The translations under genes and the position numbers were made by a program. This document shows, one piece after another, positions 609 to 17,402 of a stretch of DNA of 43,840 nucleotides. How positions within the stretch are numbered: the stretch's first letter is position 1; the number at the start of each line of letters is the position of its first letter. The notes under the pieces were generated by a model. It made no database searches. It saw nothing but the letters and a program-made list of their open reading frames with translations, and had not been told where the DNA came from. This stretch comes from Bacteroidales bacterium (lineage in GTDB: Bacteria > Bacteroidota > Bacteroidia > Bacteroidales > P3): NCBI GenBank assembly GCA_017428115.1, contig JAFRRK010000080.1, positions 1 through 43,840 on the forward strand, read 5' to 3'.

Positions 609-2696
609 TTATCCCAAATCGATATAAATACTGCTTAGTTCGGTGACTTTTTTCTCTTCTTTCAGTAGTTTCTGTGTCTGCATTTTACCATCATCACCTT
701 TGAAAACCTTAGTAATCTCATAGGCCACTAAATCTTCGGAAGTATATATCGTGATGCTGACAGGATTCTCGTTCGTGCAGTTCAGACGTAGTGTTTTGGA
801 TACTGGGTGGCTAAGTGCGGGAGATGTGACGGTGTAAGTAAGGATTATATTTGTGACATCGTCGACACTACCCAATAAAATAGGCATAATATCCTTTACA
901 ATCAATGGGTTGTCAATTATCACTGCATAGCCCTTCAACTGATAGCGTGGGAATTTCAGCGGAGGGTTGTTCTTGTCCTTGAAATAGAATACCTTGCTCA
1001 CCCACAGACTCAACTCGGACTTATCCTTTCCCCGCACGGCATACCGCGTCTCTTTGGAGTGTTCGTCCAATAGAAAGTGCTGATTCGTAATTAGTGATAC
1101 TCCATCGACATTTTCTACATCTACAATTACCTCTACCTTCTCAAAGACTGAGAAATCCACGCTGCCTGCCATTATCGGCACTTCTTTGTAGAACATATAG
1201 GAATCGGGGGCAACACAGACGGTTCTGCCGTACGATAGTATTGGCTGGGTGACAATCTCAGTGGGGGAATAGTGACCCACTGCATTACCTGAATAGATGA
1301 AACGTATCTGGTAGTAATACCCACCGTCATCGTTGTCGTCACACAGCCACGACACATTACCTTCCTTCTCATCCTGCATAGCCGAGAAAGCGAAATCAGC
1401 CAGAGGCTTTGTCCCAGCGGGCAAGGCGAAATGATTTTCCGGAACGATAGCTTCCACACCTTCTTTATGCCTCCATATGATAACCTCTGCAGACAGGAGG
1501 TCGCTGTTCTCAGCCGCGAAATCATGGAAGAGCTTGACATTTACACTCTGTGTCATCCATAGGCTGCCCTCTATTACCTTTTGCGTATAGTCTGTGAGGT
1601 GATCGACTATCGTGTCGAAATGGTCCGACAGCACAGCCTGGGGATAGTGGTGACGGACTATCGCTGACCTCTCGGAGTAGTTCACCTGCAACATGCGGTC
1701 GTCGCTGAAGGTCTGCTCTTTCAGCTTGTAGTTTAGGCCAATCTTCACCGGAGTTATAGTATCCACTGCCTTCGACAACGCCTCTGCCAGCAGTGCTTCG
1801 CTGCCTCCTTCAGTCATGGACGACGAGCCGCCTCTGACCAATGTGGGGCTAAATAGTTCGCGGAACACCATATTCCTAAACTCGTTGGTTAGTTCCTCCA
1901 CCTGCTTCTTCTCCTCGTCCGAGGTCACCTCCGAGGTCAATTCAACCACGATGTCGCCATTTTCCTTCATCTTTTGGGTCAGCCTCTGCACTTGGGCAGA
2001 GAGATCTACACTTACCTCTTCTAATGACAGGTGTAAGTTGGCGTCGATATTTTTCCTTGCCGTTTCCTGGCATCGTTTCAACCATGCAGTAATCTTCAGA
2101 TTTACTGCCGGTCGTATGGCTGTGAACTGTAGGTCATAGACTGCTGCCACCATGCTTCTCCCATGCTGGAGGGCAGAAAAAAACAATTCTGTGCCACGAC
2201 GGTCGTAGCGGACATTGAACACGCTTTTTAAATCATGGGTCAGTGATGGTCGCTGCGAGCTGACGACTGCTTTTACCATATCGCTTGGGTCGGTCTGCTC
2301 CGATTTGCCACTAGTGTCCAGCGTAATCAGGTCCACGCTGCCGTCGCTCCACAGTGGCGTGGTGGCGACAGTGTCACCGGGCAGGTCTGTGACTTCTCTC
2401 TTCAGGGCAGTCATGGCTTTTTTCAACCGCTCTTGACTGACCATGCAGTTCACACTCAGCTGCAAGATTGACCCTGCCGTGTTCTCCATGCTATCTGACA
2501 GCGACAGCGAGTCGTTGTCAGACACATTCTGCATCTTATTGTCATGAAAGAGTTGTAGAAAAAAGTCGTAACCTCCGTTGCCGCTCTGTGCCAAAGCCAC
2601 CTCGTCGGGCAGATAATAGACGATATGGTCGTCCTGATGGTCGCCAAAGAAAGTTAAGCCCTCATACCTTCCGTATGTTTTTGATAAATCCAGCAT
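609..2696 (-). CDS. Cluster protein F (last gene), N-terminal shared domain plus beta-rich repeats
   Basis: I do not recognise a named family. The start is set at ATG 2694-2696 (695 aa), because 20 further codons upstream would translate the AATTGAG repeat and spacer. No signal peptide. Residues ~1-210 carry the domain shared with cluster genes A, B, D and E: an opening strand ending in YYLP, a helix near 88-101, PSLTH at 150-154, and VYDLQFTAIRPAVNLKI from ~186. A charged helical stretch follows (~215-290). The C-terminal half is beta-rich repeats without Cys or catalytic-looking clusters. It is the sixth and last gene of the minus-strand run, 101 nt after gene E; that spacer holds a 13-bp inverted repeat. 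The function is unknown. A structural or binding role is an inference from the repeat architecture. Confidence 0.8.
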   Translation of the reverse strand: MLDLSKTYGRYEGLTFFGDHQDDHIVYYLPDEVALAQSGNGGYDFFLQLFHDNKMQNVSDNDSLSLSDSMENTAGSILQLSVNCMVSQERLKKAMTALKREVTDLPGDTVATTPLWSDGSVDLITLDTSGKSEQTDPSDMVKAVVSSQRPSLTHDLKSVFNVRYDRRGTELFFSALQHGRSMVAAVYDLQFTAIRPAVNLKITAWLKRCQETARKNIDANLHLSLEEVSVDLSAQVQRLTQKMKENGDIVVELTSEVTSDEEKKQVEELTNEFRNMVFRELFSPTLVRGGSSSMTEGGSEALLAEALSKAVDTITPVKIGLNYKLKEQTFSDDRMLQVNYSERSAIVRHHYPQAVLSDHFDTIVDHLTDYTQKVIEGSLWMTQSVNVKLFHDFAAENSDLLSAEVIIWRHKEGVEAIVPENHFALPAGTKPLADFAFSAMQDEKEGNVSWLCDDNDDGGYYYQIRFIYSGNAVGHYSPTEIVTQPILSYGRTVCVAPDSYMFYKEVPIMAGSVDFSVFEKVEVIVDVENVDGVSLITNQHFLLDEHSKETRYAVRGKDKSELSLWVSKVFYFKDKNNPPLKFPRYQLKGYAVIIDNPLIVKDIMPILLGSVDDVTNIILTYTVTSPALSHPVSKTLRLNCTNENPVSITIYTSEDLVAYEITKVFKGDDGKMQTQKLLKEEKKVTELSSIYIDLG

Positions 2697-2725
2697 GGTT
2701 TTAAAATTGAGAATTGAGTTTTTTT

Positions 2726-2782
2726 GTGAATGGTGAATTGACAATACCTTTATCAATGTGTATTTGTCTATTCACCATTCAC
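2726..2782. repeat. 13-bp perfect inverted repeat in cluster spacer E-F
   Basis: GTGAATGGTGAAT (2726-2738) pairs exactly with ATTCACCATTCAC (2770-2782) across a 31-nt loop. It lies just ahead of gene F on the transcribed strand and is flanked by 7-bp units (AATTGAG x2; TCACTAA x2). It could be a transcript-processing or attenuation hairpin. There is no T-run directly after it. Confidence 0.75.
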
Positions 2783-2797
2783 GATGTAACGCAATCA

Positions 2798-5098
2798 CTA
2801 ATCACTAAACTCTAACAGCAGCTCTTCGCTGTCGTCCTTCGTCTTTTTGCCTTGGAACACCTTCTCGTTGTCCTTGTCTTTGGCTGTGAACTTGTAAGTA
2901 TACACCTTCGAGTCGCCCTTATTCCAAAGGTAGGAGAACGCCACCACGCCGTCGGCCTTCACGATATAGTCTGTTTTCTCCTCTTCATCCTCTTCGTTTG
3001 GTGGGTAGAAGAATACTTTCACCTCATTTAGGTTGTACTTCCCAAAATCGTCCGGATTCTTCATCCTTACCTTGATGGTGCGTTCTGGCTTCAACGAGGT
3101 TACGTCGATGAGCACATAGCTCTCGTTCTTCACTGGAATCCAGCCCCCTTCTACTTTGCTACCATCGCGTCGATAGATGTGGTAGTAGTACTCAAATGTC
3201 CTTTTTTCCGTCTCCATGCTGCACTCCACCGTCAGCTTATCGCTGATGTGTTCTTCCTTGAAGGTAAACAGATTGGTCACCATATCCTCCTTTGCTGCAT
3301 CCTTAAAGCGGGTCTCTATTATCACACGCTCCACCTCGTCCCAGTCGGCCACGCAGTCTAAATCGACCTCCCACTTATTCTCAAATGGGTTGGGTACAAG
3401 GAAGATGGACGACCGCTGTGGCTTGTCCAAATGCAGTGTCACATCTTTCTCGCCTGGTATCACGTAGGTGAAGTCCATCTTATAGCCCAGCTCCATCTCC
3501 CGCTCGGTAATAACTGTCAGTGTCTTGTGGTCGTTATTCTTTTTGTCGAACTTGAAATCCTTGCTCATCACCGTCTTGCCCTCTAGCTCGTCGCTCACCA
3601 CGTCCACTTGGGCCAGAATCATGTTGGCATGTTCGAGCACCGACTGGTCAGGCAGGTTCAAGTCTATCTGGAACGTCTTGTAGTAGTCGGCAGGATTGAT
3701 GTAGATATAGTTGCTCTCGGTCGAGCGCACCTTAGTTTTCAGTGGGCTGGGTAATAGACCAGGCACCGCGTCGATGTAGTCGATGTATATGTCCGACCAA
3801 TACTCGTAGCGGTAGTTCTTGTCGCGATAGCGCGTATAGGTGAACGTCTTTTTCATGTCTACCGCCTTGTCCTTATCCTCTTTATTGTTCCCCGCCAGCA
3901 CACCATCGCCGTCGAAAGCAATCGTCATAGGCTCTTTCACCCGTTCCCCACTATCGGCATCCACTACGCTGCAGTATATAACCACCGACTTGATAACGCC
4001 CCCCTCAAACGTGTTGGCCGCCAACCGCACTGTCACCGACTGCCCCTTTACCTCCAAATCGTCTATCGGCACCCAATCGAGGTAGTCGTCAATGTTCACA
4101 CCTGCAGTGTCAATTATCTCCTTTAATTGTCCCTGCGGGCTGATGGGAAAGGTCTTGGCATTTTTCTGCCGCAGATTTATCTCGTAGATCTTTAACACGC
4201 TTTCATCTACCTCTTTGCGCCGGTAAGTATAGTTTGGCAGTATCGATTTAAACATATTGGTAAAGGCACCTGATACGCCCCTTGCCACGCTGTCGGCCGT
4301 CACCTTGTCCGATGGAAGTTTCTCCTCGGTAAAGAACAGTTTGGTCACTTCCGATTTCAACTCGTTCATTAGACTCTTCATCGCCTCAGCCTTGATGTCG
4401 GGATCCAGTTCCTCCACCTCAATGGTCAGTGCATGGCTCTCCTCCAACTCGTCTACAATCTTCTCGATATCCTTGTTATATAACACAAGGTTGAGATTCG
4501 TCCTTTCCTCCACATGGTGGTACACCTGCTTCATGTCCACCCGCATTAAGGCCTTGTAGACGGGGGTGATGCCCACCACCTCTAGGTCGTAATAGACAGT
4601 GGCTGCCACCTGGTTGCTGCTCAAGGCGGCAACTAACTGCTTGGCATCCTCGCCCGTTGCCCTAACGGCCAACGACACACGGTTGGTGCCAATCATTGAT
4701 GGGCTGAACCCCGAACTGATAAACCATTTCTTATCCTTCTCCGCATCGCTCTTCTGTAGCATCATCAGCTTCACGATGCCCTTGTGCAGCGGTGCTGGTG
4801 ACAGCGTCTTGGCCTCACGTTTGAAATTCGTAGCAATTTCCTCTCGTACCGCCTCCAGCTCTGCATCTGTCACAGAGAGGTCTATGTCTACGCTCAAACA
4901 CGTCTCTAGAATGCTGTCGTTGTTTTTATTCACGCCTGACTCGGGCACTACGGCATACACTGACAGAGCAGGTTTCCCCTCCCCGTTCATGCACAGCCTA
5001 GGTTTTTGATTCACATAGTAGAAAACATCTTTATCGGTATCGTCGGTATAAATTCTAAGATTTCCGACATCAAGAAAAGGGGGTTGTAAGTTAAGCAT
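2798..5098 (-). CDS. Cluster protein E, shared N-terminal domain plus beta-sandwich-like repeats
   Basis: Unnamed family, 766 aa, no signal peptide or membrane segment. The N-terminal domain matches genes A, B, D and F: FYYVNQKPRL near 26-35 followed by a GKPALSVY strand, PSMIG at 133-137, and YYDLEVVGITPVYKALMRVD at ~169-188. A helical segment ~190-300 follows (EELDPDIKAEAMKSLMNELK). From ~330 on there are about four beta-rich modules. The clearest begins FLVPNPFENKWEVDLDC and has the pattern DWxxVxxVxIxTxxxD...FxYYYxIxRxDGxxxxGGW. The C-terminus is acidic. The gene lies 137 nt after gene D in the same direction. The alternating strand pattern and lack of catalytic motifs suggest a structural or binding protein; that is inference. 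Confidence 0.8.
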   Translation of the reverse strand: MLNLQPPFLDVGNLRIYTDDTDKDVFYYVNQKPRLCMNGEGKPALSVYAVVPESGVNKNNDSILETCLSVDIDLSVTDAELEAVREEIATNFKREAKTLSPAPLHKGIVKLMMLQKSDAEKDKKWFISSGFSPSMIGTNRVSLAVRATGEDAKQLVAALSSNQVAATVYYDLEVVGITPVYKALMRVDMKQVYHHVEERTNLNLVLYNKDIEKIVDELEESHALTIEVEELDPDIKAEAMKSLMNELKSEVTKLFFTEEKLPSDKVTADSVARGVSGAFTNMFKSILPNYTYRRKEVDESVLKIYEINLRQKNAKTFPISPQGQLKEIIDTAGVNIDDYLDWVPIDDLEVKGQSVTVRLAANTFEGGVIKSVVIYCSVVDADSGERVKEPMTIAFDGDGVLAGNNKEDKDKAVDMKKTFTYTRYRDKNYRYEYWSDIYIDYIDAVPGLLPSPLKTKVRSTESNYIYINPADYYKTFQIDLNLPDQSVLEHANMILAQVDVVSDELEGKTVMSKDFKFDKKNNDHKTLTVITEREMELGYKMDFTYVIPGEKDVTLHLDKPQRSSIFLVPNPFENKWEVDLDCVADWDEVERVIIETRFKDAAKEDMVTNLFTFKEEHISDKLTVECSMETEKRTFEYYYHIYRRDGSKVEGGWIPVKNESYVLIDVTSLKPERTIKVRMKNPDDFGKYNLNEVKVFFYPPNEEDEEEKTDYIVKADGVVAFSYLWNKGDSKVYTYKFTAKDKDNEKVFQGKKTKDDSEELLLEFSD

Positions 5099-5157
5099 AA
5101 TCGAGTGTATTATATTGATTGATTGTTTGTGACCTTTTTTTGTGTAAATTGTGATGT

Positions 5158-5202
5158 GTGAATTGTGAATTGAAAAAAACTATTTCAAGATTCACTATTC
5201 AC
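5158..5202. repeat. Imperfect 13-bp inverted repeat in cluster spacer D-E
   Basis: GTGAATTGTGAAT (5158-5170) and ATTCACTATTCAC (5190-5202) pair at 12 of 13 positions with a 19-nt loop. This parallels the hairpin in the next spacer (2726-2782). The repeat-like sequence continues to 5240, so the last codons of gene D (NSDQ-stop) are encoded by repeat-like ATTCATTGGTCACT sequence. Confidence 0.7.
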
Positions 5203-5235
5203 GAATCACTAATATTTTGTTTCACTGGTTACTAT

Positions 5236-7578
5236 TCATTGGTCACTATTTTTTGGCGGTGTCAGGATAAAGAACGTCTTGTCGGTCTTGCCAGTGATTG
5301 CAGGCTGTTCCTGACCTTCCATGTCGTACAGCGTCATCGTCCAGCTCAGTTCCAGCTTCTTATCGTCGAGGCAGAACAGATAAAACATCTTCGAATCAGT
5401 GTCCTTGTCCTTTTTCGTCAGTTTGAACACCAAGGGTTTTCCACACCCTTCTGAAGGGACGATTTCCACCGTGGCGCGGTAATACTTCTCACCAAGTCCC
5501 AGCAGGTCTATACCCGCCATCTCCACCTTCTTTAGGGGTATCATTAGCAAGTTGGAGTCTGCGTCGCCCTTCAGTCGGCCAGACGACACGGCCTCCATCT
5601 CGTCACCAATATACTTAAGTTTAAGCTGGTATTCGTAGTCGGCTCCCACATCCTCCAGCGAGCATAGCTTTACCGACTGGGATTCCCAGTCGTCATCCTT
5701 CGTTAGTTCCACGGGGAAGGCATATTTGCCGTAATAAATCTCGCCGCGGATTTCCTTCACGCTCTTGTCGGGTTCCAGCGGTAGCTCTACCTTGAGACTT
5801 TTGCGGTTGGCGAAGGGGAAGTCGCCATAGATGGTTTTAACCCCGTTGTCGCCCATATAGAAGGTTTTCTCTTGTAGGGTGATGGGGTCAATATCCTCAA
5901 AATTATAGGTATACCTATAGTGCAACGGTTGGTCGAGCAGTACGTCCAGATTTCTCTCCAGTTTCACCTCTTCATTGAGGTCAGTCAGTAACAACTGTTC
6001 GGGTCCCATCAGGCGTTTGCCATTGGCATCGTCGTACCACACTTCCACCTGCACGTTTGTCGGCTTTAAACCTTTTGGCAGTGCGGTGGCGTTGGGGTGC
6101 GCCTTGAAGGACACGTCGATAAGACCTATTCTTCCCACGTTCACCAGCACATACTCGCCCTCGGTAGTTTGTGTCGGTAGCTGTATTCCGTCGGGGTCGC
6201 TACTGCCTTTTAGGAACACGTAGGGTGTATACTTGATAACACCGTTGTCCTCCTTGGGTCTCATAAACTCCCAATCGGCTGAAGCCTTCTCGCCGTCGAG
6301 CACAAAGCTTCTCACCCTCTCCTTGTGGCCCTCGGGTAGCGAGGGGTATTCGCACACAACCTTCACGCAGTTGATCTCGGGTTTCCCCTTCCAGTCGGCG
6401 TAGACCCCTAGCGTGATATGCTTGAACGAGAAAATATCTTCCGACATATCAATCAGCGTCACCATCTTTCCAATCTGCTCGTCGGTCAAATCTTTAAAGA
6501 AGTCGCAGATGGTGGCCTGCGGCGAGAAGGAGAATTCAAAGACGCTGTTCTCGCTAAAGTTCAGCTCCGTAAACGAGCGGAATTCCTCCTCGATAATCAT
6601 CTCCTCCTTCTTCGCCCTCTCTTCGGGAGTGAGTGGCATAATCTTCGTATTGATGATTTCCTCCACCTTCTTTTCCAAGATGCCCATCATTGATTGGCGG
6701 ATATTGTTCACCACATCGTCGCTCAAGTCGGTCGAATAGCGGTCTACCTCGATATTGATAAACCCCATGTCGGTTAGCATTTCAGTAATCTTTCTTGAGT
6801 CCACCGTCCCTTTGCAGCTGTCGCCCTTGTCGAAATGTTGGACTATGGATGCGGCCTGTACCGAGCCTGCGTAGATTCTGATATTCAGGGCAGGCATACA
6901 CATGCGCATACTCATGTCGAAACGCACGCTCACCGTTTGCGCTCTCTGCTGGATAGCCTTACAGGCCACTGCCGCGCCTTCGGGCGTGAATTGTACGGCT
7001 ACCGCGCTATTGTTGTCGCCCAGCATAGAGGGGCGTTTAGTGCCGTTGTGCCACTGCACAAGTGTGCCACCGTTTTGCTCGTTCAACTCGAAGGAGCCTT
7101 TTGTGTAGTTCACCGCGCCAAAGGTAACCTCGCCCACTGTGGGAATTTTGGATCTTGCGGCGTTACGTTCGCCCTCGAGGAAATCCGACATGCTGTTCTT
7201 CTTCTCCTCCTTGTCTTGCAAAGAAGAAGGTCCCGTCACAGCCGCAATCAGATTCTCCCGCTTCTTCTCACGGGCAATAATATCATTATAGCGTTTGGTC
7301 TGAATGTCTTGGCTGGTGATGAGTTGCTTGATAGCTTCTTTCTCGGTTTCGTTAACACCGAGATTCACGTCAAAATTCATTCTCCCGCCTAGCACACCGG
7401 CAAAAGTCTTGTCAGACGCCTTATCGCTGCTCCAGAAGATGCTACGGAACACAGGTTCGCCGTCATCGTTGACGCGTATTTGAGGAGTGTTTCGGATGCA
7501 ATAGTACATATTGCAATCCACACTGTCAGGAAATACTGATATGTCTTTATATTCAAGAACAATGGGTAATGTAATCAT
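5236..7578 (-). CDS. Cluster protein D, shared N-terminal domain plus beta-rich repeats
   Basis: Unnamed family, 780 aa, no signal peptide. The N-terminus shows the shared opening (MYYCIRNTPQIRVNDDG, residues 24-40), a helix near 78-105, and PSMLG at 183-187 followed by a 'SAVAVQFTPEGAAVACKAI' segment. The equivalent of the YDLxxxGIxPA stretch is altered to FDMSMRMCMPALNIRIYAG (~220-238), so this copy is the most divergent of the five at that site. A K/E-rich insert lies at ~100-130, and a helix (ILEKKVEEIINTKIMPLTPEERAKKEE) at ~300-330. Beta-rich modules follow to the end, for example EIRGEIYYGKYAFPVEL and YEYQLKLKYIGD. It lies 70 nt after gene C and 137 nt before gene E. Probably co-transcribed with them; the function is unknown. 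Confidence 0.8.
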   Translation of the reverse strand: MITLPIVLEYKDISVFPDSVDCNMYYCIRNTPQIRVNDDGEPVFRSIFWSSDKASDKTFAGVLGGRMNFDVNLGVNETEKEAIKQLITSQDIQTKRYNDIIAREKKRENLIAAVTGPSSLQDKEEKKNSMSDFLEGERNAARSKIPTVGEVTFGAVNYTKGSFELNEQNGGTLVQWHNGTKRPSMLGDNNSAVAVQFTPEGAAVACKAIQQRAQTVSVRFDMSMRMCMPALNIRIYAGSVQAASIVQHFDKGDSCKGTVDSRKITEMLTDMGFINIEVDRYSTDLSDDVVNNIRQSMMGILEKKVEEIINTKIMPLTPEERAKKEEMIIEEEFRSFTELNFSENSVFEFSFSPQATICDFFKDLTDEQIGKMVTLIDMSEDIFSFKHITLGVYADWKGKPEINCVKVVCEYPSLPEGHKERVRSFVLDGEKASADWEFMRPKEDNGVIKYTPYVFLKGSSDPDGIQLPTQTTEGEYVLVNVGRIGLIDVSFKAHPNATALPKGLKPTNVQVEVWYDDANGKRLMGPEQLLLTDLNEEVKLERNLDVLLDQPLHYRYTYNFEDIDPITLQEKTFYMGDNGVKTIYGDFPFANRKSLKVELPLEPDKSVKEIRGEIYYGKYAFPVELTKDDDWESQSVKLCSLEDVGADYEYQLKLKYIGDEMEAVSSGRLKGDADSNLLMIPLKKVEMAGIDLLGLGEKYYRATVEIVPSEGCGKPLVFKLTKKDKDTDSKMFYLFCLDDKKLELSWTMTLYDMEGQEQPAITGKTDKTFFILTPPKNSDQ

Positions 7579-7648
7579 AGTATTTAGGTTATAATAATGT
7601 TTAATTATATATTTGAAATTCAGTGTTTATGGTCACGAAAACCAGTCC

Positions 7649-10627
7649 CTATCTTTTTCTCTTGTCTCCACGTCCAGTGCGAGAGATATCTTTAGTCTTT
7701 GGTCGAGTAGATGTAGTAGTCTGTGGATTAGTGATTTTAATAGATTTTAAGAGTGAGTCTCTAGTAGGTCGTCGTCGAATGGTTGTATCTTTTGACCGAG
7801 AGACTGAGGAAGAAGAAGCCGGACGAGTGACTGTAGTAGTCTGTGGACGAGTGACTGTGCTAGTCTGCGGACGAGTGACTGTAGTAGCAGAAGATGGACG
7901 AGTGACTACTGGCAATAAGACCGTCGAGCTGTCGGCAGTTATCCATTCACTGGCAATTTGCTTGTCTTCATTATTGGTGTAGTATACCTTAAACAGAGGC
8001 TTAATCTTTGGATTTTTGATTGGGATGGTGAATGTCAATGAGCCTTGATATGGTATGGTGTCGGTTTTGGCATAATGGATGCCGTTTGAGTCGTCATCAT
8101 ACTTTACATCAACCTTTACCGATTTGATATATTCGTTTTCATCCCACGCCATACGGAATGTCAGATTGGAACCTTTCTTGCACCGATCGAGATTGAACAC
8201 GATACATAAGAATGCCACAATGAAAACTAGTGCAATCGCTGGCTTCAACCACTTCTGGTCTTTTAAGGGTTTTTTAGCAGATCTTTCTTTGGGTGGACGA
8301 ATAGCGTTCCATACTTGGTGGAATTCGGGACTAGGCTTGAATGATATCGGAGCGTCGCCAGGCAGGATTACTGTCGTATTAGTGACGGTGGTCAAATCGC
8401 TGAAGGCAGCACTATTTTTACCACTCTCTTGTTTGTAGTTATATTTGACAATAATACGTGGCTTTATCTCTGGATTCTTGATGCGTAGGGTGACAGATCG
8501 GTTTTCAATTTCGCCCCGGATCAGTGTAATATCTTTTTCGCATAGGTGTATTTGATTCTGCTCATCATCGTAGATGACATAGATGAAAGCCTTGTCATTT
8601 TGTGGAGGCCAGTTGACTCGGAAGTTGAGGGTGAGGTACTGCGTTTCGGGTTCGGCAGGTTGTGTTGTGCCCGTTGATTCTGATGCTTGGGGATTTGGCT
8701 CGTCGGGGACTGTCGGCTCTTTGAGGTCGTCTTCATAGATGAATAGGATTCCGTTCATGTCCGTGTTGGTCCGCCATGCGGTCCATTCCGGATCTGTAGG
8801 TCCGTCGTTGAGGATTTGTCGGATGCGGTACTCAAATATACGTTTCTCATCATTATTGGATTGCAGCGCGGCGTTGAGATTCGGAGTCATGGAAATCTTG
8901 GTCTGATTGTCACCATTTACCAGGGAGACAATCTCGTTGATACCGAATTTATTCCTCAGCCCGATTTGTAGTACTTTGAGGTCGGGATGGTTAGACCAGT
9001 TGAAGTCGGCCATAATAGTCTGTGTCCATTCTTCGAGCGGAGTGGCAGCGGATTCATTGGTCTTGGTAATTATTTCTTTGAGGTCTTCGTCGTTGAGGCG
9101 GATTGTGTAGGGTTCGCAGATGAACTGGTTCCAGTAGTCTTCGTTGGTACCGATGCCGAGGAACTTGGCATGTTTTATCTTGTCGGCCTGTTCTTCGGTG
9201 AGTTTGACAGAAACGCTGGCATCGCGATCGAGTGTGACGGGGAGACCTTTGTCGGACATGTACATTAGGTTATGTTCGGCATCGGTCACTTTATTGTTTT
9301 TCCATCTAAGGAGTGAAAGTGTGAGACCGCCGATTTTAATAGGGTATTGGCCACGATTGGTGATAGTGGCCATGTAGTTGGGCCATGTGCATTGGTCTGT
9401 TTTCACTTCAGGGTGGATGCCAGTAAGCTTATGCATGTTGAGCTCCACAGGGATGGGCCCCAGCTCGTGTTCCTTTTCGGCATCGATACCGTCGTACACT
9501 TTGAAATAGACATTACCGATGGCGATGCCTTCGTTTAGGAGTTTGTCTTGGAAGAGTTGGACAGCACCGTCATAGGGCGTTTTGAGCACGACGACGAAGC
9601 TGGACTCGGGTCCGGCCTGTATTTCTTCTACGGGGACGATGGAGGAGTAGCCCTCTTTGCCATATAGCTTGCCGTCAGGCATCTCCTGTCCCCATTCAAA
9701 GCGTGCGCAGTTGAAGCCGCCGTAGCGAAGTTCGCAGTATTTTTTGCCTTTCCTTCGTAGGAATACGGTGTATGCGTTACGTTTGGCGTTGGGATTGACA
9801 TAGGGGGCTATGCGGATGCGGGTGAGGATTTTCCGACCACCCTCTTCATCGACAATTTCGGTAGTGATGTCGGGAGCATTGTTTGACAATGCCTTGATGC
9901 GGTATTCTTGGGGCAAGAAGTAGATGGCATCGTCCTTGAAGGGGTCTTTGAAGTAGACGGTGTGGGCATGGCCTTCGTTGTCGAGGAATGTTTCCTTTTC
10001 CCAGCAGAGGAGGTTTTTGACATCTTCGAACATGTGGCTGTCTTCAAGGGCATCGATGTCGATAGTACCACTGACAGTGGTGGTCTGAGGCTCAATAGAA
10101 GCGTTTTCTTGTTTGAGTTTTTCCTGCAACTCAGGTGAGGTAATGTCGAACCATAGAAACTTGCCGCTCCATTCGATTTTGGCACCCCCCTCTTTGAGTA
10201 TGGCTTTTTTGAGTGCGATGAAGTTTTGGATGTCCTTCCACTTCTCTGTGCCGCCAGCCTCCTGCGGACGCTGGCTGCTATTCATATAGAAATTTAGATT
10301 CTGGGTATGGTCGGGGTAGATGAGTTTGATGTTCAGATTCCTCAGTATCATGGGCACGGCATCGGCCACGTCAGTATTGACAGTGAACTTGTAGTCCATG
10401 ATGACCTGGTCGTTTTCGATTTTGAAGTACAAGTGGATGGGTGTCCCATCGAGACTGAGCCGTTCGAATACTAGCTTGGGCTCTCCATACTCCATGGGCT
10501 GGAGGTTGCTGTCGAAGCCCTTTATCTTTGTGCCGGGCACGTATGGGCCATAGAGGAAGTTGATTTCTTCCGAATTGACCATCTTGCTGATGAATGTTTT
10601 GAGCGTTTCGCTAAGGGGAATGTCCAT
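7649..10627 (-). CDS. Cluster protein C, single-pass membrane protein with C-terminal module outside
   Basis: 992 aa, unnamed. It differs from its five neighbours: the shared N-terminal domain is absent, replaced by ~650 residues of unrecognised mixed alpha/beta sequence. A ~90-residue beta module begins near 665 (pattern YDDEQNQIH...IKNPEIKPRIIVKY...TVILP). A basic segment (RSAKKPLKDQK) then precedes one hydrophobic helix at ~790-810 (AIALVFIVAFLCIVFNL), and a second copy of the module follows (~815-900, KYDDDSNGIHY...IKNPKIKPLFKVYY...TVLLP). The tail is Thr/Arg/Pro-rich with 8-residue TVTRPQT(S/T) repeats and ends GDKRKR. By the positive-inside rule the N-terminus would be cytoplasmic and the tail periplasmic. 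The module is shared with gene B, which suggests that B and C work together; C may be the anchor of the system (inference). Confidence 0.8.
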   Translation of the reverse strand: MDIPLSETLKTFISKMVNSEEINFLYGPYVPGTKIKGFDSNLQPMEYGEPKLVFERLSLDGTPIHLYFKIENDQVIMDYKFTVNTDVADAVPMILRNLNIKLIYPDHTQNLNFYMNSSQRPQEAGGTEKWKDIQNFIALKKAILKEGGAKIEWSGKFLWFDITSPELQEKLKQENASIEPQTTTVSGTIDIDALEDSHMFEDVKNLLCWEKETFLDNEGHAHTVYFKDPFKDDAIYFLPQEYRIKALSNNAPDITTEIVDEEGGRKILTRIRIAPYVNPNAKRNAYTVFLRRKGKKYCELRYGGFNCARFEWGQEMPDGKLYGKEGYSSIVPVEEIQAGPESSFVVVLKTPYDGAVQLFQDKLLNEGIAIGNVYFKVYDGIDAEKEHELGPIPVELNMHKLTGIHPEVKTDQCTWPNYMATITNRGQYPIKIGGLTLSLLRWKNNKVTDAEHNLMYMSDKGLPVTLDRDASVSVKLTEEQADKIKHAKFLGIGTNEDYWNQFICEPYTIRLNDEDLKEIITKTNESAATPLEEWTQTIMADFNWSNHPDLKVLQIGLRNKFGINEIVSLVNGDNQTKISMTPNLNAALQSNNDEKRIFEYRIRQILNDGPTDPEWTAWRTNTDMNGILFIYEDDLKEPTVPDEPNPQASESTGTTQPAEPETQYLTLNFRVNWPPQNDKAFIYVIYDDEQNQIHLCEKDITLIRGEIENRSVTLRIKNPEIKPRIIVKYNYKQESGKNSAAFSDLTTVTNTTVILPGDAPISFKPSPEFHQVWNAIRPPKERSAKKPLKDQKWLKPAIALVFIVAFLCIVFNLDRCKKGSNLTFRMAWDENEYIKSVKVDVKYDDDSNGIHYAKTDTIPYQGSLTFTIPIKNPKIKPLFKVYYTNNEDKQIASEWITADSSTVLLPVVTRPSSATTVTRPQTSTVTRPQTTTVTRPASSSSVSRSKDTTIRRRPTRDSLLKSIKITNPQTTTSTRPKTKDISRTGRGDKRKR
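7821..7911. repeat. 24-bp coding tandem repeat in gene C tail
   Basis: The sequence GGACGAGTGACTGT recurs at 7821, 7845 and 7869 (24-bp steps), with a further GGACGAGTGACTA copy at 7896. It encodes the TVTRPQT(S/T) octapeptide repeats of the protein's tail. Repeat number is likely to vary between strains by slippage. Confidence 0.85.
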
Positions 10628-10655
10628 GATTGTGAATAATGTGATTGGTGAATGG

Positions 10656-10702
10656 TGATTAGTGGCCTGTGTTTTTCTGTGGACTATGATTAGTGACCTG
10701 TG
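10656..10702. repeat. 31-bp-spaced direct repeat in cluster spacer B-C
   Basis: TGATTAGTGGCCTGTG (10656-10671) and TGATTAGTGACCTGTG (10687-10702) differ at one base. They lie in the 110-nt spacer between genes B and C, which is made of GTGA(A/T)T(A/T)G-like units similar to those in the other cluster spacers. Confidence 0.75.
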
Positions 10703-10737
10703 AAACGAGCGCTATCGTGTCACCGGTCACCAAATAA

Positions 10738-13692
10738 TTAAGCTTTAGGTGGTACTGCATCGGGCAACAATATGGTTGTGCCAGAGATGGGGGTCTCGTC
10801 GCTGTTGATAGTGTCGCCAGTGAGAGTGACGTATTCGGCCAGTATGCGGGGCTGTATGGCTGGATTCTTAATTTGAATGGTAACCACCTTGTCTTCGTTA
10901 CTTTGCTTAATTTTGAAGGTTGGGCAGTTGTCGTCGTTGTAGTGGATGCCGTTTGCATCGTCGTCATACTTGATATGGATAGCTACGAAGTACCATTTCT
11001 CCCAGTCCATGCCTGCAGGACTGAATGTGAGGTTGAGGTCTTGAATGACGGGTTCGGGCGCAGGCTCGGGTGCAGTTGCAGGAGTGCTACTGCTGCCTAT
11101 TGTCTGGGAGGGACTGGATGAGCCAGAGTTCACAGGAGCGGCAACGTCCTGCGTGGGGGGTGCGGCGGCTGGCAGTATGACGTAGGTGTTGGCTGTCTTT
11201 TCCTCACTGGGGATGATTATGTCGCCCGTCGGTGGGACGTATTCGGCAATGATGCGGGGTCGGATGGAGTCATCGAGGACGGGAATTTCGACTGTACATT
11301 CACATTGCCCTTCTATGAGTTTGAGTGGCTTAATCTTTTCGTCACCATAATGGAGGTTGTTGGTGGGGTCGTCATATTTGAAATGTAGGATGACACAGAA
11401 CCACTTTTTCCAGTCGATCATGCCACCGTCGATGTCGATGGTCATGCTGTGGGGAATGGCGGCCCTGTTGACGCTGACTTTGAGCTCGATAGTCTGCTGG
11501 TAGGTGTCGGCACTCATAGCGACAGGGGCTGACCATTCGGACTCTTGACGCTCGTCGTTGCCTACGACATAGTATTGATATTTGTACTTGTAGGTCTTTT
11601 CACGGTCTTCTTTGAGACGAATTTGCCATTGCCACATGTCGGGATCATCGAACCAAGGACTGTACTCCTCCTTGCCTTGGCATTTGACGATTACTCGTAC
11701 CTTGTCAATGTCGGAGCGTTTGAAGAGGAGGTCGAAGTTGGTGGTGAAGACACCAGTGAGCTTGTCGTTGACGGTAAGGGATTTGGTCGAGTTGTCGCCG
11801 TGATACTCTTGTGACCAATCGTCGGTGCCGTCGAGGTAGAAGTAGTGGATGCGGTAGGTGTAGTCGGAGGTGCCTTTGTACATAAAGCAGTTCCATGTGT
11901 CGATGGGGTTCTGCTGGGTGAGGGTGATGGTTTTGGTAGCACCGTATTGGTCAGGTGCGTCACGGTATTTGAATTCGACATCGAGTTTTTGGATGACGTT
12001 CCAGGCTACGTCGCCAGCTGTGCACTCTACGCAGAGGTTGCGCATGTCGACATAAGGGACATATATGTCGCTGCCGATGCCACTACATTCTTTGAGTTGT
12101 GTCCATTTTTGGTCTTCGCTCATGTTGCGGTAGACATCGTAGCCGCGGTAGCGTATCATGGTGCTGTAGTAGAATTTGTCTATCAGTTTGCCTTGGTCGT
12201 CACGGCTCATGATGACTGAGAAAGTCTTGGTGTCGGGATTGTCTTTGTCGAAGTTGAAAACGCGGTCCATCTTGGTTGCACCAGTCTTTTCCTTGTAGAT
12301 GACTCGGACAGAGACGATGGCGATGTCGCGTTCGAAATTGGTGTTGTCGACGCGGACGGGAACTATCATTTCTTGGAAGTATATGTCGCTAGCATCAAGT
12401 TCGCGCACGTAGGTGTTCATGTCGACTCCTTTGAGTAGGAGCTCGAGGGTCTGGTTGGGATTGGCTTCGAACTCGACGGCCTTGTTTTTGGTGATTGTGA
12501 AGTCGTAGTCGGTATGGGCTTCGATATTTTCGATGTTGCGCAGGCGGTAGTCGATGTCGTAGGCGACATTTTTCTTCTTACTGTCGGTATGGGCCTTGCC
12601 ATCTTTGTCGGTATAAGTGTTCTCAACTTGTCCGGTTTCCACGTCGTGGGGGGTGGCAATGTCGTTGGGGTCGAGGGGTTGGACATGCTCGAACATCATG
12701 TCGCACACTTTGTCGGCGAGCTGGTCGCCGAGCGACTTGATGATGAGTTCTTCGTATTTTTCGTTGTTTTCGTCTTTGATGTAGCCTATGATTTCGATTT
12801 CGATATTTTTGGTAATAGAGTTGTAGTTGTTTAGGTAGTTGTATAGATCTTCTTTGGAGATGTAAAGGTCGGCGCCGTTGCAGTAGACTCTGCCACTTCG
12901 GTTCATGTTGTTTATTTCTTTGGGGAGGATATATTCGCCACGGTATTTGGAGTCGAGGCCGGCGTGGGAGTTGCGTTTGTTTTTAAATACACTGTATATT
13001 TGGTCGTACTTGATACGCGCCTTAGCAATGAAGGGCATGAAGGCATCGTATTTGAGCTCATATTCGATGACAGCACTAAGGTTGACACTCTTGTCGTCTT
13101 TTTCGTGGGGCTTAAAGATTTGGTAGAGGATTTGCGACTCTTGGGCATCGTAGTTGGCGGCAAATGTGGCGTTGCAGTTTCCGAAAAGGCTGGGTTTGGT
13201 CTCTTTGGTAAACTTTCCATCGACGTCGGAGCTGGCGAGGTTGATGGTTGCCTTGCCAGAGGTGAAGTCAACGGGACGTATGGTTACTCTGTGGGTGTTG
13301 ATGGGGATGATTCTCCACAGTCGTTTATTGATGCCGGTCAATGTGCTTGGTGGGATAATCTTAGAGGTGTCATATTTGGGGTAGTATTGAGCAATAAGGC
13401 TGTTGAAATTAATTGTCCGCACAGCGTTCTCAATTTTTTGCATCTCATCATCGGTGAGTGCGAGATTGACGGAAAGAACTAGTCGGCCTTCTTGAACGGC
13501 ATTGGAGCCTTCTTTTTTGATGCCGCGACCGATGACCATGTAGTCAAAGACAGACTTTTTGGTCTCGGGGTTGACGGTGATGCGGGGGTGGTTGTTGATG
13601 TAGTAGATGGTGTAGGGGTCTTGATGGTCGTGATAGAGGGATATGTATGGGGCACCATCTACTCCGGGGCAGGGGATGAAATTTGTAATCAT
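10738..13692 (-). CDS. Cluster protein B, shared N-terminal domain plus five beta modules
   Basis: Unnamed family, 984 aa, no signal peptide. The N-terminal domain is shared with A, D, E and F: YYINNHPRITVNPETKK (30-46), LVLSVNLALTDDEMQKIENA (71-90), PSLFG (167-171) and VIEYELKYDAFMPFIAKARI (208-227). A helix near 310-340 follows (YEELIIKSLGDQLADKVCDM). From ~420 there are about five consecutive beta modules. The last two have the pattern DW(K/E)KW....(I/H)xYDDxxNxxHY...I(K/V)xPxIxPRIxAEY...(Y/T)xxLP, and the same module occurs twice in gene C. A Pro/Ala/Ser-rich linker separates the last two modules. The gene starts 54 nt after gene A and ends 110 nt before gene C. Function unknown; tandem sandwich modules suggest binding or assembly. 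Confidence 0.8.
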   Translation of the reverse strand: MITNFIPCPGVDGAPYISLYHDHQDPYTIYYINNHPRITVNPETKKSVFDYMVIGRGIKKEGSNAVQEGRLVLSVNLALTDDEMQKIENAVRTINFNSLIAQYYPKYDTSKIIPPSTLTGINKRLWRIIPINTHRVTIRPVDFTSGKATINLASSDVDGKFTKETKPSLFGNCNATFAANYDAQESQILYQIFKPHEKDDKSVNLSAVIEYELKYDAFMPFIAKARIKYDQIYSVFKNKRNSHAGLDSKYRGEYILPKEINNMNRSGRVYCNGADLYISKEDLYNYLNNYNSITKNIEIEIIGYIKDENNEKYEELIIKSLGDQLADKVCDMMFEHVQPLDPNDIATPHDVETGQVENTYTDKDGKAHTDSKKKNVAYDIDYRLRNIENIEAHTDYDFTITKNKAVEFEANPNQTLELLLKGVDMNTYVRELDASDIYFQEMIVPVRVDNTNFERDIAIVSVRVIYKEKTGATKMDRVFNFDKDNPDTKTFSVIMSRDDQGKLIDKFYYSTMIRYRGYDVYRNMSEDQKWTQLKECSGIGSDIYVPYVDMRNLCVECTAGDVAWNVIQKLDVEFKYRDAPDQYGATKTITLTQQNPIDTWNCFMYKGTSDYTYRIHYFYLDGTDDWSQEYHGDNSTKSLTVNDKLTGVFTTNFDLLFKRSDIDKVRVIVKCQGKEEYSPWFDDPDMWQWQIRLKEDREKTYKYKYQYYVVGNDERQESEWSAPVAMSADTYQQTIELKVSVNRAAIPHSMTIDIDGGMIDWKKWFCVILHFKYDDPTNNLHYGDEKIKPLKLIEGQCECTVEIPVLDDSIRPRIIAEYVPPTGDIIIPSEEKTANTYVILPAAAPPTQDVAAPVNSGSSSPSQTIGSSSTPATAPEPAPEPVIQDLNLTFSPAGMDWEKWYFVAIHIKYDDDANGIHYNDDNCPTFKIKQSNEDKVVTIQIKNPAIQPRILAEYVTLTGDTINSDETPISGTTILLPDAVPPKA

Positions 13693-13746
13693 AATGATGT
13701 GTTTTTAATAATCAGTAATCATTAATTAAGATTATTCATTTTTTAA

Positions 13747-16700
13747 TTAGACACTTAGGACATATTCTGTTCTGTCGGTGTAGAATTCTGTTTGGTTTGG
13801 GGTGAAGTTTGTAGATGTGCCGTCGTTGCGTTTGAGGATGACTGATTTGACGGTTATTTTTTCAGGATCCTCGGCGTTGTAGTTGGTTACAAAGTAGTAT
13901 TCGGGTTTCCGCTTGGTGAGTGTGAAGGAGTGCTCGCGGTTGCCTTGTTGGAGCAAGATGTCAATGCTTATAATGTTCTGGAAGGTATCTTCTCCTTGTG
14001 CGGTGGTGAACAGGATCATACCGGAGGTGGGGTTTTGAATTATGAGTTCTTTGCGTTCGAGAGAGGCGGTGATGACGGTAAGTGCGCGTTGGGAGATAGG
14101 GATGTTGTTGTAGGGTTCGTTGAGGGTGTAATTGATTTGTGCTTTGTAGTGACTGTTTGGGTTGAGGAGGATAGTGTCGTTGGTGTCGGAGGTGATGCTG
14201 AGGTCATAGATGCTGGAACCTAGGGTGCTATTGTGTACGGGAAGGAGTGAAAGCAGAGCGGTATTGAGGCCTTGGTTTAGGGTGAGGTTGCCTGCCGTGA
14301 TGTTGAGGGCGTAGATGCCCGCGATATCGTCGGGGCCGATGGCGATGACTTTGTTGGTAGTGGTCTTCCACAGGGTTTGGAAGAGGAAAGACTGGTCGGG
14401 ATCAAAGCCGACACATTTCTGGGAGTCGAAGACCAGAGTCACTTTATAGTATAGAAGTTTTGGGGAGAGGGTTTCGTTGGTTATCTCCTCGTCAGTGAAT
14501 TGGCGTTTGAGTTCGGAATCGGTGGGTATGGCGGTGGAGAATTCTTCAGAGTAGAACTCGATTTCGGCCTCGGGTTTCTCTTTGGTGAGGGAGACGACAT
14601 GTCCAGTACTTTCGGGGTGTTTGAGGTCGATGCTGATTTGCTTGAGGTGGTAGGTGTCGAAGTCGAGTGATGAGTATAGCTTGATGGTGTGTTTGCGGAA
14701 GAAGCCCATGCCCAGTCGGCCGACCATCACTTGGCGTTCGAGGTCGAAGTCGGTGCCATCGACGGTAACCATGCCGCAGGGGTGGATGATTTGGTTGATG
14801 GCGGTCTGCCTGTTGAAGATGTAGGTGCGTTTCTTGGTTTCCCTTAGATTACGCTTTTTGTAGGTGTAGGCAATCTTGGCATTGAGTTTCCATTCAACGC
14901 TGTCAACATTGGTGACAATGGACTCGCTGGACTCTTTGCTCGTAGTGTTTTTGATGTCTTTTTCAGATGGTTCGGTAATAGTCGGTTGGGTGTTCTTGTC
15001 ATCACTGATAGGTGGTTCGGTAACAGGTGGTTGGGTGTTCTTGTCATCACTGATAGGTGGTTCGATAACAGGTGGTTCGGTGTCCTTTGGCTTCTCTGTG
15101 GGTTTGACTTCTTGTTCTTTCTTCTTGTCGGCTAAGAATAGGTTGTATTGCTCTTCTTCCATGTATTTTTTGACAACGGCGTATTTTTCCCACTTTTCGG
15201 TGGAAGAAACCTTCTTCTCCCATATATCTTTAGTTATTCTGCTGTGTTTGTCAGCAAGTTCTCTGAATTTCTTTTTATTTGGTTTTTGTGAGGAGGAAGA
15301 TGAAGATGATGTGTTGTCGCAGGGGTCGCAGCAAGGGTTGCAGTTGTTTTGTTCGCGGATGGGGCAGCCGTTTTTGTCATAGCCGATGTCCTTTAGGTAT
15401 CTTGTGTATCCTGATTCGTTGACGTATTGCTCTTTGGTTGAGTATTTTTCGAAGTCGGCTTCAGTAAGGTCTTTTTTGAGCCATTCGTCAAGGTCTATTT
15501 GCTTGCCTACGCCTGCGATTGATATGAATGAGGGGTATGTGCGGGTTTCGTTGGAAGTGTTGGTGTTCTGTTGGGTGTTCTGTTGGGTGTTCTGTTGGGT
15601 GGTTTGTTGGATATTTTGTTGAATGGTTTGTTGGATGATTGTGGAGAGGTTGGAGGAATTGGAGGGTTGCTGACCTTGTTGTTGGGCTTGTTGTTGACCT
15701 TGCTGCTGATCTTCAGTTTTCTTTTCTTCAGTTTTCTTTTCTTCAGTTTTCTTTTCCTCAGTTTTCTTTTCTTCGATTTTCTTCCCCAGTTTCTCCATCT
15801 CTTTGGCTGCGCTGAAATCCTCTTTGGGTAAAGGAGTGGCTGTGAAGAGTTCTGCGGAGAGTAAATCTTTGACCAGTTTGATGGCATTGGGGTCGTCTGC
15901 ACCGAGGGGGGTGCCAGTGTTGTTTCCGGCGAAATCGATTTGTTGGACCACGATGCTGCCTTCGTCGATGAGCTTTCGGTACATATTCTCTATGTCCACA
16001 TCGGCAGCAATGGAGATGCCGAATCCGTCTTTATTGGTGTTGCTGCTTTTGTCATTTTTTTCTTGGGAAGAATCCTCGTCACCATAGGTGAAATCGCCAG
16101 TGAGATTGAAGTGGCTGTCCCAGTAGTCTTCGATGGCTTTGAAGTCGACGGTGATTTTGACATAATGGGCTGGCTCGATGCCTTTGTACGTGAGGTCGTA
16201 GAGTACAGATATTTGTGAGTTGATGTATTTTTCGGATTGAGGCTGGGATGAGTCATCAACGTCGTCGGACTGATTTTTCTTGCTACAGGTGAGCATATTG
16301 TACATGATTTCAGCGTCCCGCCCACCCAAACGGACTGAGAATACAGCGGATTGTTTGCCATAGAGCGAAGGGTGTTGCGAACCGACGATTCTGACTTGTG
16401 AGAGGGGTTTCTCTTGCGCTCCATCCTCGCCAAGCACGTATAGTTTCACGTCGCCTTCATTGAAGATGACGGGTGTCAACACAAATTCGTCTGATGAGGA
16501 GATGATGTCATCAGCATCGAAGTCTTCCTCGTCAATTGATTCGCCATTGGCCTTCTTTTCGGTGACGGCTTGCCGTATAGCGTAGGGGAGGAGGTTTTTA
16601 AACTCTTTCTTGAGTTCGTTGATCTCTGCTTCCGTAGGACCGAGTTCTACTTGGAGGGTGAGGAAACCGCCTGTCTGATTGATATCGTCGTTAAACTTGG

Positions 16701-16875
16701 GGTTATCGGTGTCCCCCATCTCCGAATTAATATAGACATAATAGCTCAGTTTCTTTCCGTTGTCTGCAATATGGACATTACCCTCTTTGGGAAGATACCA
16801 ATACTTTCTCTTATCTGCATGGTCACGAAAAAGGGTTATCCCATTTATTGATACCGCATACTCTTTAGCTAGCAT
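13747..16875 (-). CDS. Cluster protein A (first gene), shared N-terminal domain with long low-complexity linkers
   Basis: Unnamed family, 1042 aa, no signal peptide. It is the first gene of the six-gene run, behind a ~170-nt leader. The shared domain includes YWYLPKEGNVHIADNGKK (25-42), LTLQVELGPTEAEINELKKE (72-91), PSLYG (~168-172) and VLYDLTYKGIEPAHYVKITVD (~222). A segment NMYRKLIDEGSIVVQQIDF follows near 295-315. Then come linkers: KKTEE repeats (~365-388), a Q/N-rich tract (~388-442) and a Cys cluster near 500-520 (CPIREQNNCNPCCDPC). A Ser tract and a 15-residue TEPPISDDKNTQPPV repeat (~595-638) follow. The C-terminal ~390 residues are beta-rich. The C-x8-C-x2-CC-x2-C spacing could bind metal (inference). 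The linkers suggest separated domains, and this member may scaffold the others. Confidence 0.8.
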   Translation of the reverse strand: MLAKEYAVSINGITLFRDHADKRKYWYLPKEGNVHIADNGKKLSYYVYINSEMGDTDNPKFNDDINQTGGFLTLQVELGPTEAEINELKKEFKNLLPYAIRQAVTEKKANGESIDEEDFDADDIISSSDEFVLTPVIFNEGDVKLYVLGEDGAQEKPLSQVRIVGSQHPSLYGKQSAVFSVRLGGRDAEIMYNMLTCSKKNQSDDVDDSSQPQSEKYINSQISVLYDLTYKGIEPAHYVKITVDFKAIEDYWDSHFNLTGDFTYGDEDSSQEKNDKSSNTNKDGFGISIAADVDIENMYRKLIDEGSIVVQQIDFAGNNTGTPLGADDPNAIKLVKDLLSAELFTATPLPKEDFSAAKEMEKLGKKIEEKKTEEKKTEEKKTEEKKTEDQQQGQQQAQQQGQQPSNSSNLSTIIQQTIQQNIQQTTQQNTQQNTQQNTNTSNETRTYPSFISIAGVGKQIDLDEWLKKDLTEADFEKYSTKEQYVNESGYTRYLKDIGYDKNGCPIREQNNCNPCCDPCDNTSSSSSSSQKPNKKKFRELADKHSRITKDIWEKKVSSTEKWEKYAVVKKYMEEEQYNLFLADKKKEQEVKPTEKPKDTEPPVIEPPISDDKNTQPPVTEPPISDDKNTQPTITEPSEKDIKNTTSKESSESIVTNVDSVEWKLNAKIAYTYKKRNLRETKKRTYIFNRQTAINQIIHPCGMVTVDGTDFDLERQVMVGRLGMGFFRKHTIKLYSSLDFDTYHLKQISIDLKHPESTGHVVSLTKEKPEAEIEFYSEEFSTAIPTDSELKRQFTDEEITNETLSPKLLYYKVTLVFDSQKCVGFDPDQSFLFQTLWKTTTNKVIAIGPDDIAGIYALNITAGNLTLNQGLNTALLSLLPVHNSTLGSSIYDLSITSDTNDTILLNPNSHYKAQINYTLNEPYNNIPISQRALTVITASLERKELIIQNPTSGMILFTTAQGEDTFQNIISIDILLQQGNREHSFTLTKRKPEYYFVTNYNAEDPEKITVKSVILKRNDGTSTNFTPNQTEFYTDRTEYVLSV
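14969..15075. repeat. 45-bp coding tandem repeat in gene A
   Basis: The GGTTCGGTAA...GATAGGT unit begins at 14969 and at 15014, and a partial third copy starts at 15059. It encodes a 15-residue Pro/Asp/Lys-rich linker repeat (TEPPISDDKNTQPPV). Confidence 0.85.
15565..15600. repeat. 12-bp coding tandem repeat in gene A
   Basis: Three exact copies of GTTCTGTTGGGT, flanked by degenerate ones. They encode the N-T-Q-Q repeats inside the Q/N-rich linker. Confidence 0.9.
15711..15770. repeat. 15-bp coding tandem repeat in gene A
   Basis: Four copies of CTTCAGTTTTCTTTT (one substitution in the fourth), encoding the charged (K)KTEE pentapeptide repeat that precedes the Q/N-rich linker. Confidence 0.9.
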
Positions 16876-17051
16876 AATTTTATAGTTTTTTACCCGTTGA
16901 AAGAATTATGTCAGTGCGCAATTCCGTCAAATGGTTTATGGTTAATGATACAGTAGGTTCTTTATACTTTTTGGCCGTTATGACAAGCAGAACCCGTTGA
17001 CCTGCCAAACCGATGTCACACCGTGGTGTTTTTTAACATTTTTTTCGACTG

Positions 17052-17367: not shown

Positions 17368-17402
17368 AGGTAAGAGGTAAGAATTAAGAATTAAGAATTA
17401 AG
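17368..17402. repeat. 7-bp tandem repeat array (AGGTAAG x2, AATTAAG x3)
   Basis: Five consecutive heptamers: two AGGTAAG and three AATTAAG. The unit is the same as at the left edge of the window. Confidence 0.9.

What the first reader, a model, noticed from the sequence alone, without database searches (positions are those of the whole stretch)
609..16875. Six consecutive large genes of one unnamed family, apparently one operon
Six minus-strand genes (695-1042 codons) follow each other with 54-137 nt gaps. Five share a divergent N-terminal domain: PS[LM]xx near residue 133-186, then (V/I)xYxLxxxxxxPAxxxxI 30-60 residues later, then a helical region and beta-rich repeats. There is no signal peptide, and no enzyme or nuclease motif was seen. 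Only one promoter-like site was recognised, before the first gene. From memory, proteins with similar N-terminal patterns occur in other bacteria as uncharacterised large proteins, but I know of no described function. A cytoplasmic assembly is the inference.
Basis: partly seen in the sequence, partly recalled or inferred. Interest (0 to 1): 0.85.

Follow-up and report, generated by a model that had tools for sequence, protein, structure and literature searches.

The report
Unnamed six-subunit transferable bacterial gene system
Six neighbouring genes all encode related large proteins with no named family; the set has moved between species as one block, and versions of it occur in many bacterial phyla, in some of them beside protein-cutting enzymes of the caspase type, so it looks like an undescribed multi-part system whose job is still unknown.

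Summary
In detail: six minus-strand genes (695-1042 codons, gaps 54-137 nt) encode one superfamily. All six belong, not five; P0004 has the shared motif at about residue 224 and fits a separate conserved subfamily, D. Pfam, NCBIfam, PADLOC, PHROGs and PDB searches gave no credible match.

Related arrays, often in the order D-E-F-C-B-A, came from a genome scan that returned 69 loci in many phyla and one archaeal MAG. In the strictest clusters, caspase-domain genes adjoin arrays in 11 loci and DMATS-prenyltransferase-like genes in 17.

In the window's genus 2 of 120 genomes carry it. Five genes compared are 93-98% identical (dS 0.06-0.21), while two chromosomal genes of the same genomes have dS 1.6-2.3, and the flanks differ. 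So the six genes moved as one block; five show purifying selection.

Most likely role (inferred): subunits of a cytoplasmic or membrane-docked hetero-oligomer in a conflict or cell-death system with an exchangeable enzyme partner. The window copy lacks such an enzyme; its D subunit has a predicted transmembrane segment.

The parts
609..2696 (-). P0001, 695 aa (ATG start; TTG-opened ORF to 2756). A group by tree (support 0.67-0.79) and position; profile scores for B and A are equal (123.6 / 122.0 bits)
2798..5098 (-). P0002, 766 aa, B-type subunit by profile
   Evidence: 155 bits to B, next best C 103; sister of a protein of acidobacterial MAG locus L091, support 1.0. In the tree this pair lies in an 11-member group beside the A clade, so B rests on profile and position
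5236..7578 (-). P0003, 780 aa, C-type subunit
   Evidence: 156 bits to C, next best B 61; in the C clade, support 1.0
7649..10627 (-). P0004, 992 aa, D-type subunit with a Ser/Thr/Pro/Arg-rich C-terminal tail whose repeats differ in number in the second species
8198..8254 (-). Predicted transmembrane segment of P0004 (about residues 792-810)
   Evidence: Kyte-Doolittle 19-residue mean 2.14
10738..13692 (-). P0005, 984 aa, second C-like subunit (placement within C unsupported)
   Evidence: 106 bits to C, next best A 76; tree support 0.07 for its inner node
13747..16875 (-). P0006, 1042 aa, A/B-like subunit with a long low-complexity insertion containing a short Cys-rich stretch
   Evidence: B 82 / A 76 bits; sequence
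16876..17164 (-). Probable operon promoter/leader: the part next to the first gene is nearly identical in the second species, then similarity fades
355..17164 (.). Block shared with a second species of the genus at 94-96% DNA identity by blastn, with different flanks; the only genes I recognise in it are the six

Best explanation
The six genes are one horizontally transferable operon-like cassette. They encode paralogous subunits of a hetero-oligomeric complex: a diverged N-terminal domain followed by beta-rich repeats. SHOWN: common ancestry of all six (P0004 more weakly than the rest); best-match correspondence of P0004, P0003 and P0002 to the D, C and B subunits of a gene set found across phyla, with P0001 in the A position; transfer of the six as a block; purifying selection on the five genes measured. 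INFERRED: the subunits assemble through their shared domains into one complex; the complex acts in conflict, defence or cell-death biology by recruiting or triggering an enzyme encoded next to it (caspase-like peptidase, DMATS-like enzyme, papain-like or PLD protein in other branches). In the window branch the enzyme is missing and the D subunit is membrane-anchored, so this copy either acts at the membrane itself or uses an enzyme encoded elsewhere. My confidence is about 0.9 for 'one conserved multi-subunit system' and about 0.3 for the conflict role; the beta-rich reading is from sequence pattern only.
For: One superfamily: phmmer, profiles without the window, hhalign E 6.6e-22 for E, 4.6e-18 for F, 2.4e-6 for D (100 columns, probability 89%) against the A/B/C profile, P0004 to D 1.3e-8. 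Gene order: contiguous C-B-A in 49 of 74 loci, D in 56 of 74. Unit of transfer: 2 of 120 genus genomes, 94-96% DNA identity with different flanks, dS 0.06-0.21 in five genes against 1.6 and 2.3 in two chromosomal genes; G+C 44-50% against 52-57% in 9 of 12 two-kb windows beside it. Selection: dN/dS 0.11-0.20 in five of six genes. Patchy spread: 8 of 395 in the phylum, 1 of 393 in the order, 1 of 128 in another order. Enzyme partners: caspase cluster in 11 loci, 16 genes, the first one inside or within 43 nt of the array in 10 of the 11, catalytic motifs kept in 17 of 18 ORFs; DMATS-like cluster in 17 loci, best PDB match CymD E 5.7e-4; a protein I read as papain-like and a PLD-domain protein inside some arrays. 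PADLOC on 63 neighbour proteins: its caspase model matches 4.
Against: No experiment, no structure. No enzyme in the transferred block of the window. No subunit match to a PADLOC defence model beyond chance; among 63 neighbour proteins other PADLOC matches are one or two members per model. DMATS-like, SQHop-like, P450 and tyrosinase neighbours are not usual conflict effectors. Trypsin-like, EAD1 and STAND genes lie beside one array only (L013): no ORF of the other 73 loci resembles these three proteins at E 1e-3. A complex is inferred from paralogy and synteny alone. Caspases were in only 12 of 74 loci.
Confidence: 0.4

Rival explanations
1. A structural or delivery particle (adhesive, tail-like or released complex) made of beta-rich subunits that carries toxins to other cells.
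Against: PHROGs matches look like chance, one member each; no hydrophobic signal in the window proteins except the internal one of P0004; among neighbour clusters of three or more loci I saw no tail or sheath gene, read by eye.
Confidence: 0.2
2. A scaffold for tailoring enzymes of a specialised metabolite or of the large proteins themselves (prenylation, oxidation, cleavage).
For: DMATS-like genes adjoin arrays in 17 loci; SQHop-like genes near a few arrays, a P450 and a tyrosinase near one each.
Against: I saw no biosynthetic core gene among the recurring neighbour clusters, read by eye; some arrays have caspases instead or as well; the window has none of these enzymes in the block.
Confidence: 0.15
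3. Six separately useful surface or structural proteins that arose by local duplication and are not a complex.
For: All six are paralogues; tandem duplication alone can make arrays.
Against: C, B and A groups and their order are kept across phyla, which local duplication in each lineage would not give; the set moved as one block (62-64).
Confidence: 0.1

Closest known systems
EAD/STAND and caspase-bearing biological conflict systems (Kaur et al. 2020 PMC7159879; 2021 PMC8195603; seen: search listing and found passages)
   Same: Multi-gene conflict systems with peptidase effectors such as caspase and trypsin (passages in 65); one array here (L013) directly follows trypsin-like, EAD1 and STAND genes
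   Different: The window has no EAD, STAND NTPase or caspase in the block; the terms I searched in those two papers showed no description of these large subunits, but I did not read the papers whole
Phage-tail-like injection systems / eCIS
   Same: Several large proteins in an ordered array; some relatives have muramidase-like neighbours
   Different: No sheath, tube or baseplate match: PHROGs matches at chance level. That such systems need these parts is recalled knowledge
DMATS-type aromatic prenyltransferases
   Same: A 17-locus cluster next to arrays resembles CymD and two other DMATS enzymes (E 5.7e-4, 0.021, 0.025)
   Different: This is a partner gene in other loci, absent from the window block

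Membership tests
D-E-F-C-B-A paralogue system defined here | Subunits share the N-terminal domain and repeats | tested here: met
   Five by profiles without the window, P0004 by the iterated D profile without the window and by hhalign
D-E-F-C-B-A paralogue system defined here | Contiguous C-B-A order with a D gene on the same strand | tested here: inconclusive
   Order is P6-P5-D-C-B-P1; P1 is A by tree but scores equal for A and B, so the automatic label was B and the window is not among the 49 of 74
D-E-F-C-B-A paralogue system defined here | E and F subunits | tested here: not met
   No window gene is best matched by E or F; P5 and P6 take their place. The Paracoccus loci L013 and L090 also have no best-E gene; rhizobial L012 has one at 58 bits that one search did not label
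D-E-F-C-B-A paralogue system defined here | Adjacent caspase or DMATS-like enzyme (not present in all loci) | tested here: not met
   None in the block; Pfam scans of 20 other window ORFs show none. Caspase-domain matches are on contigs C57 and C25 of the genome
EAD/STAND conflict systems | EAD adaptor or STAND/MoxR NTPase in the locus | tested here: not met
   Window Pfam scans
Anti-phage systems in PADLOC-DB 2.0.0 | Match of a subunit to a system protein model | tested here: not met
   63 subunits scanned (P0002 the only window protein among them), best E 0.0055, at most 2 members per model
Phage tail / contractile injection | Tail, sheath or baseplate homologues | tested here: not met
   The same 63 subunits against PHROGs, best E 0.0016, one member each
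Any family with a solved structure | Sequence-profile match in PDB | tested here: inconclusive
   Only matches to PDCD5 over a helical-looking stretch, E 0.003 and 0.39, judged chance; fold comparison impossible

The most novel reading that the evidence does not exclude
A widespread, undescribed prokaryotic immune or cell-death complex whose scaffold is a set of about six paralogous beta-rich subunits and whose effector is an exchangeable enzyme, in several phyla one or two caspase-like peptidases; the Bacteroidales cassette is an effector-less branch anchored in the membrane through subunit D.
Probability: 0.25. Interest if true: 0.9.

Novelty: categorically new. Interest (0 to 1): 0.72.

Why it matters
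A gene set of recurring composition in many phyla, laterally mobile and in part with caspase-like partners, has no model in the libraries searched. If it is a conflict system it would add a new architecture to prokaryotic immunity and a new setting for caspases. If it is a particle or an enzyme scaffold it would be a new type of cellular assembly. The defined subunits and named isolates among the loci (e.g. Lysobacter enzymogenes, Streptomyces, Paenibacillus oceani, Larkinella arboricola) make it testable now.

Tried and rejected
Searched and empty or at chance: Pfam and NCBIfam on the six proteins; phage records with P0002; plasmids with P0005 (23, none) and P0003 (24, two Paracoccus records); viral contigs with a pattern from A2; PDB by sequence and profile; PADLOC and PHROGs on 63 subunits; Rfam and tRNA on the window. 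PDCD5 match: one protein over a helical-looking stretch, rejected as chance. 'UFC1', 'Tail_P2_I', 'Extensin' and similar weak Pfam lines: below curated cut-offs, not used.

Rejected: that P0004 is unrelated. My first D score for P0004 (152 bits) was inflated because P0004 had entered the training set; it is replaced by the scores. P0001 also scores weakly with that D profile (16.6 bits in round 2, 11.1 in round 3). First gene calls were wrong in G+C-rich genomes and were replaced. Labels A-F come from profiles built on the same loci, so the order counts are partly circular; the loci were fetched with one pattern from an A/B alignment, so A or B is present by construction, and several loci are close relatives (Streptomyces, Lysobacter, Paracoccus, rhizobia). 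The NP label (35 of 74) includes rhizobial proteins of doubtful kinship; I rely on the 17-locus cluster. For the neighbour scans (94, 95) I gave 63 proteins: 56 of the 85 listed, most near-duplicate caspase and DMATS-like genes left out, plus 7 others; the tallies do not say which protein matched. A clean insertion junction or target repeat for the block was sought and not found: similarity fades at both ends. AATTAAG repeats flank the array in the window but also occur at other places in the genome.

Papers: five searches named no such system as far as their listings show; beyond listings I saw only found passages of PMC8195603 and PMC7159879. This is not proof that it is unpublished.
Full report
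WHAT IS THERE. The six reported genes are real ORFs on the minus strand with gaps of 54, 110, 70, 137 and 101 nt. All start with ATG if P0001 begins at 2696, which gives the family's usual ML start. Pfam and NCBIfam give no family.

ONE SUPERFAMILY, ALL SIX. P0002 hit plasmid proteins of Pararhizobium and Paracoccus, whose loci carry whole arrays of relatives. A phmmer among 28 proteins links P0001, P0002, P0003, P0005 and P0006 with these and partly with each other. From an alignment of five relatives one pattern scan of the species-genome collection gave 69 loci in many phyla, by record title. A tree of 221 members shows C, B and A groups. Profiles built without the window and eleven other loci score P0003 as C (156 bits; next 61), P0002 as B (155; next 103), P0005 as C-like (106; next 76), P0001 as B/A (124/122) and P0006 as B/A (82/76). 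In the tree P0001, P0002 and P0003 are each sister, with support 1.0, to a protein of one acidobacterial MAG locus, L091; P0002 and its sister fall in an 11-member group beside the A clade, so its B label rests on the profile and on position. P0004 aligns with subfamily D over residues 224-633 (32 bits, E 1.9e-9 at a fixed set size of 1000, window excluded from training, one A protein in the last round; 30.5 bits the round before; not significant before the profile was iterated). hhalign gives 1.3e-8. hhalign ties E, F and D to the A/B/C profile (6.6e-22, 4.6e-18, 2.4e-6); for D this covers 100 columns only.

A RECURRING GENE SET. Over 74 loci (69 fetched, two plasmid loci, two pieces of one locus of genome G148, and the window), 49 have contiguous C-B-A and 56 a D gene. 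The common full order is D-E-F-C-B-A. Of 24 loci whose array ends more than 1.5 kb from both ends of the stretch, 7 have six subunit genes, 13 five and 4 four; counting long E genes as E+F fusions, 11 have six, 9 five, 4 four. Two of the four-gene loci have an unlabelled ORF of subunit size inside the array. These counts are partly circular and include close relatives (see Tried and rejected).

ENZYME NEIGHBOURS ELSEWHERE. The clearest recurring neighbours are a caspase-domain cluster (11 loci, 16 genes; 17 of 18 ORFs of at least 250 aa in the wider set keep the GHG and DxCxxGG motifs; Pfam C14 for two) and a cluster resembling DMATS prenyltransferases (17 loci; CymD E 5.7e-4; Trp_DMAT E 0.058, below cut-off, for one member). 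Inside arrays of rhizobia and one Chloroflexi MAG sits a protein of 568-674 aa (five full copies) that I read by eye as papain-like (Pfam silent for two copies), and in four Paracoccus loci a PLD-domain protein (Pfam, cluster in 45). One Paracoccus array follows trypsin-like, EAD1 and STAND genes; no ORF of the other 73 loci resembles them. The window block has none of these.

TRANSFER AS A UNIT. In the genus 2 of 120 genomes carry the family: the window's and G836. An earlier search of 40 relatives, 24 of the genus, with P0002 found none besides the window's own. G836 holds all six genes on two contigs; blastn covers window 355-17164 at 94-96%. Per-gene identity for the five genes that could be compared whole is 93.0-98.2%, dS 0.056-0.215, dN/dS 0.11-0.20. 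P0006 is split across contigs and was not computed. In the same two genomes window DNA at 24844-32340 matches at 70-84%; dS is 2.26 for the GH3 gene and 1.56 for the phosphofructokinase gene, the M23 gene gave no dS estimate and the 5'-nucleotidase was not found on the loci used. Flanks differ, and similarity fades at the edges. Block G+C is 44-50%; beside it 9 of 12 two-kb windows are 52-57% and three 44-50%. I conclude recent lateral transfer of the whole set.

DISTRIBUTION. 8 of 395 phylum genomes match: the window's own, one full array (G148), four single-gene relatives and two weak repeat-only hits that I did not follow. 1 of 393 in the order, the window itself; that drawn sample did not show G836. 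1 of 128 in the order of G148, itself. No match in 50,697 phage records (P0002 only) and no viral-contig match to the one pattern used.

HOW IT MAY WORK. Few columns are invariant: M1, D19 and G107 of P0002 among 63 sequences; 12 of the 16 near-invariant ones are Pro, Leu, Gly or Tyr. This suits a structural rather than a catalytic role. Hydrophobic segments are rare (17 of 304 subunits of at least 550 aa); P0004 has the strongest internal one, so D may dock the assembly to the membrane here. The simplest reading is a hetero-oligomer of paralogous subunits with an exchangeable enzyme. Conflict or cell death is my preferred role because of caspase, PLD and peptidase partners, patchy occurrence and lateral spread. 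It is an inference; caspases were seen in only 12 of 74 loci, and DMATS-like neighbours do not fit it well.

NOVELTY. The subunits scanned matched no curated family, defence model, phage family or solved structure beyond chance. I therefore rate the kind as new, with the reservation that only open-access papers could be searched, five searches were made, and fold comparison was unavailable.

Noticed in passing
   Followed up: partly
L089, L092, L096, L099 (Cohnella faecalis contigs): Many short fragments of family genes, on both strands in three of the four: decayed or fragmented copies of the array in one genome.
   Followed up: no
L094 and L095 (Saccharicenans / Aminicenantes MAGs): Family members with N-terminal hydrophobic segments, so an exported branch may exist.
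   Followed up: no
window 19817-22801 (+): C10 (streptopain-type) peptidase with an I69 inhibitor-like region and a weak secretion-tail match; outside the transferred block.
   Followed up: no
window 1-30 and 17378-17401: AATTAAG tandem repeats on both sides of the array, also at other places in the genome.
   Followed up: partly
L036 13216-16101: An A subunit with a long insertion that looks OmpA-like by eye; Pfam did not recognise it.
   Followed up: partly
L110 5906-9001 compared with window 7649-10627: TVTRP-type repeats in the tail of P0004 differ in number between the two species (39 gap columns).
   Followed up: partly
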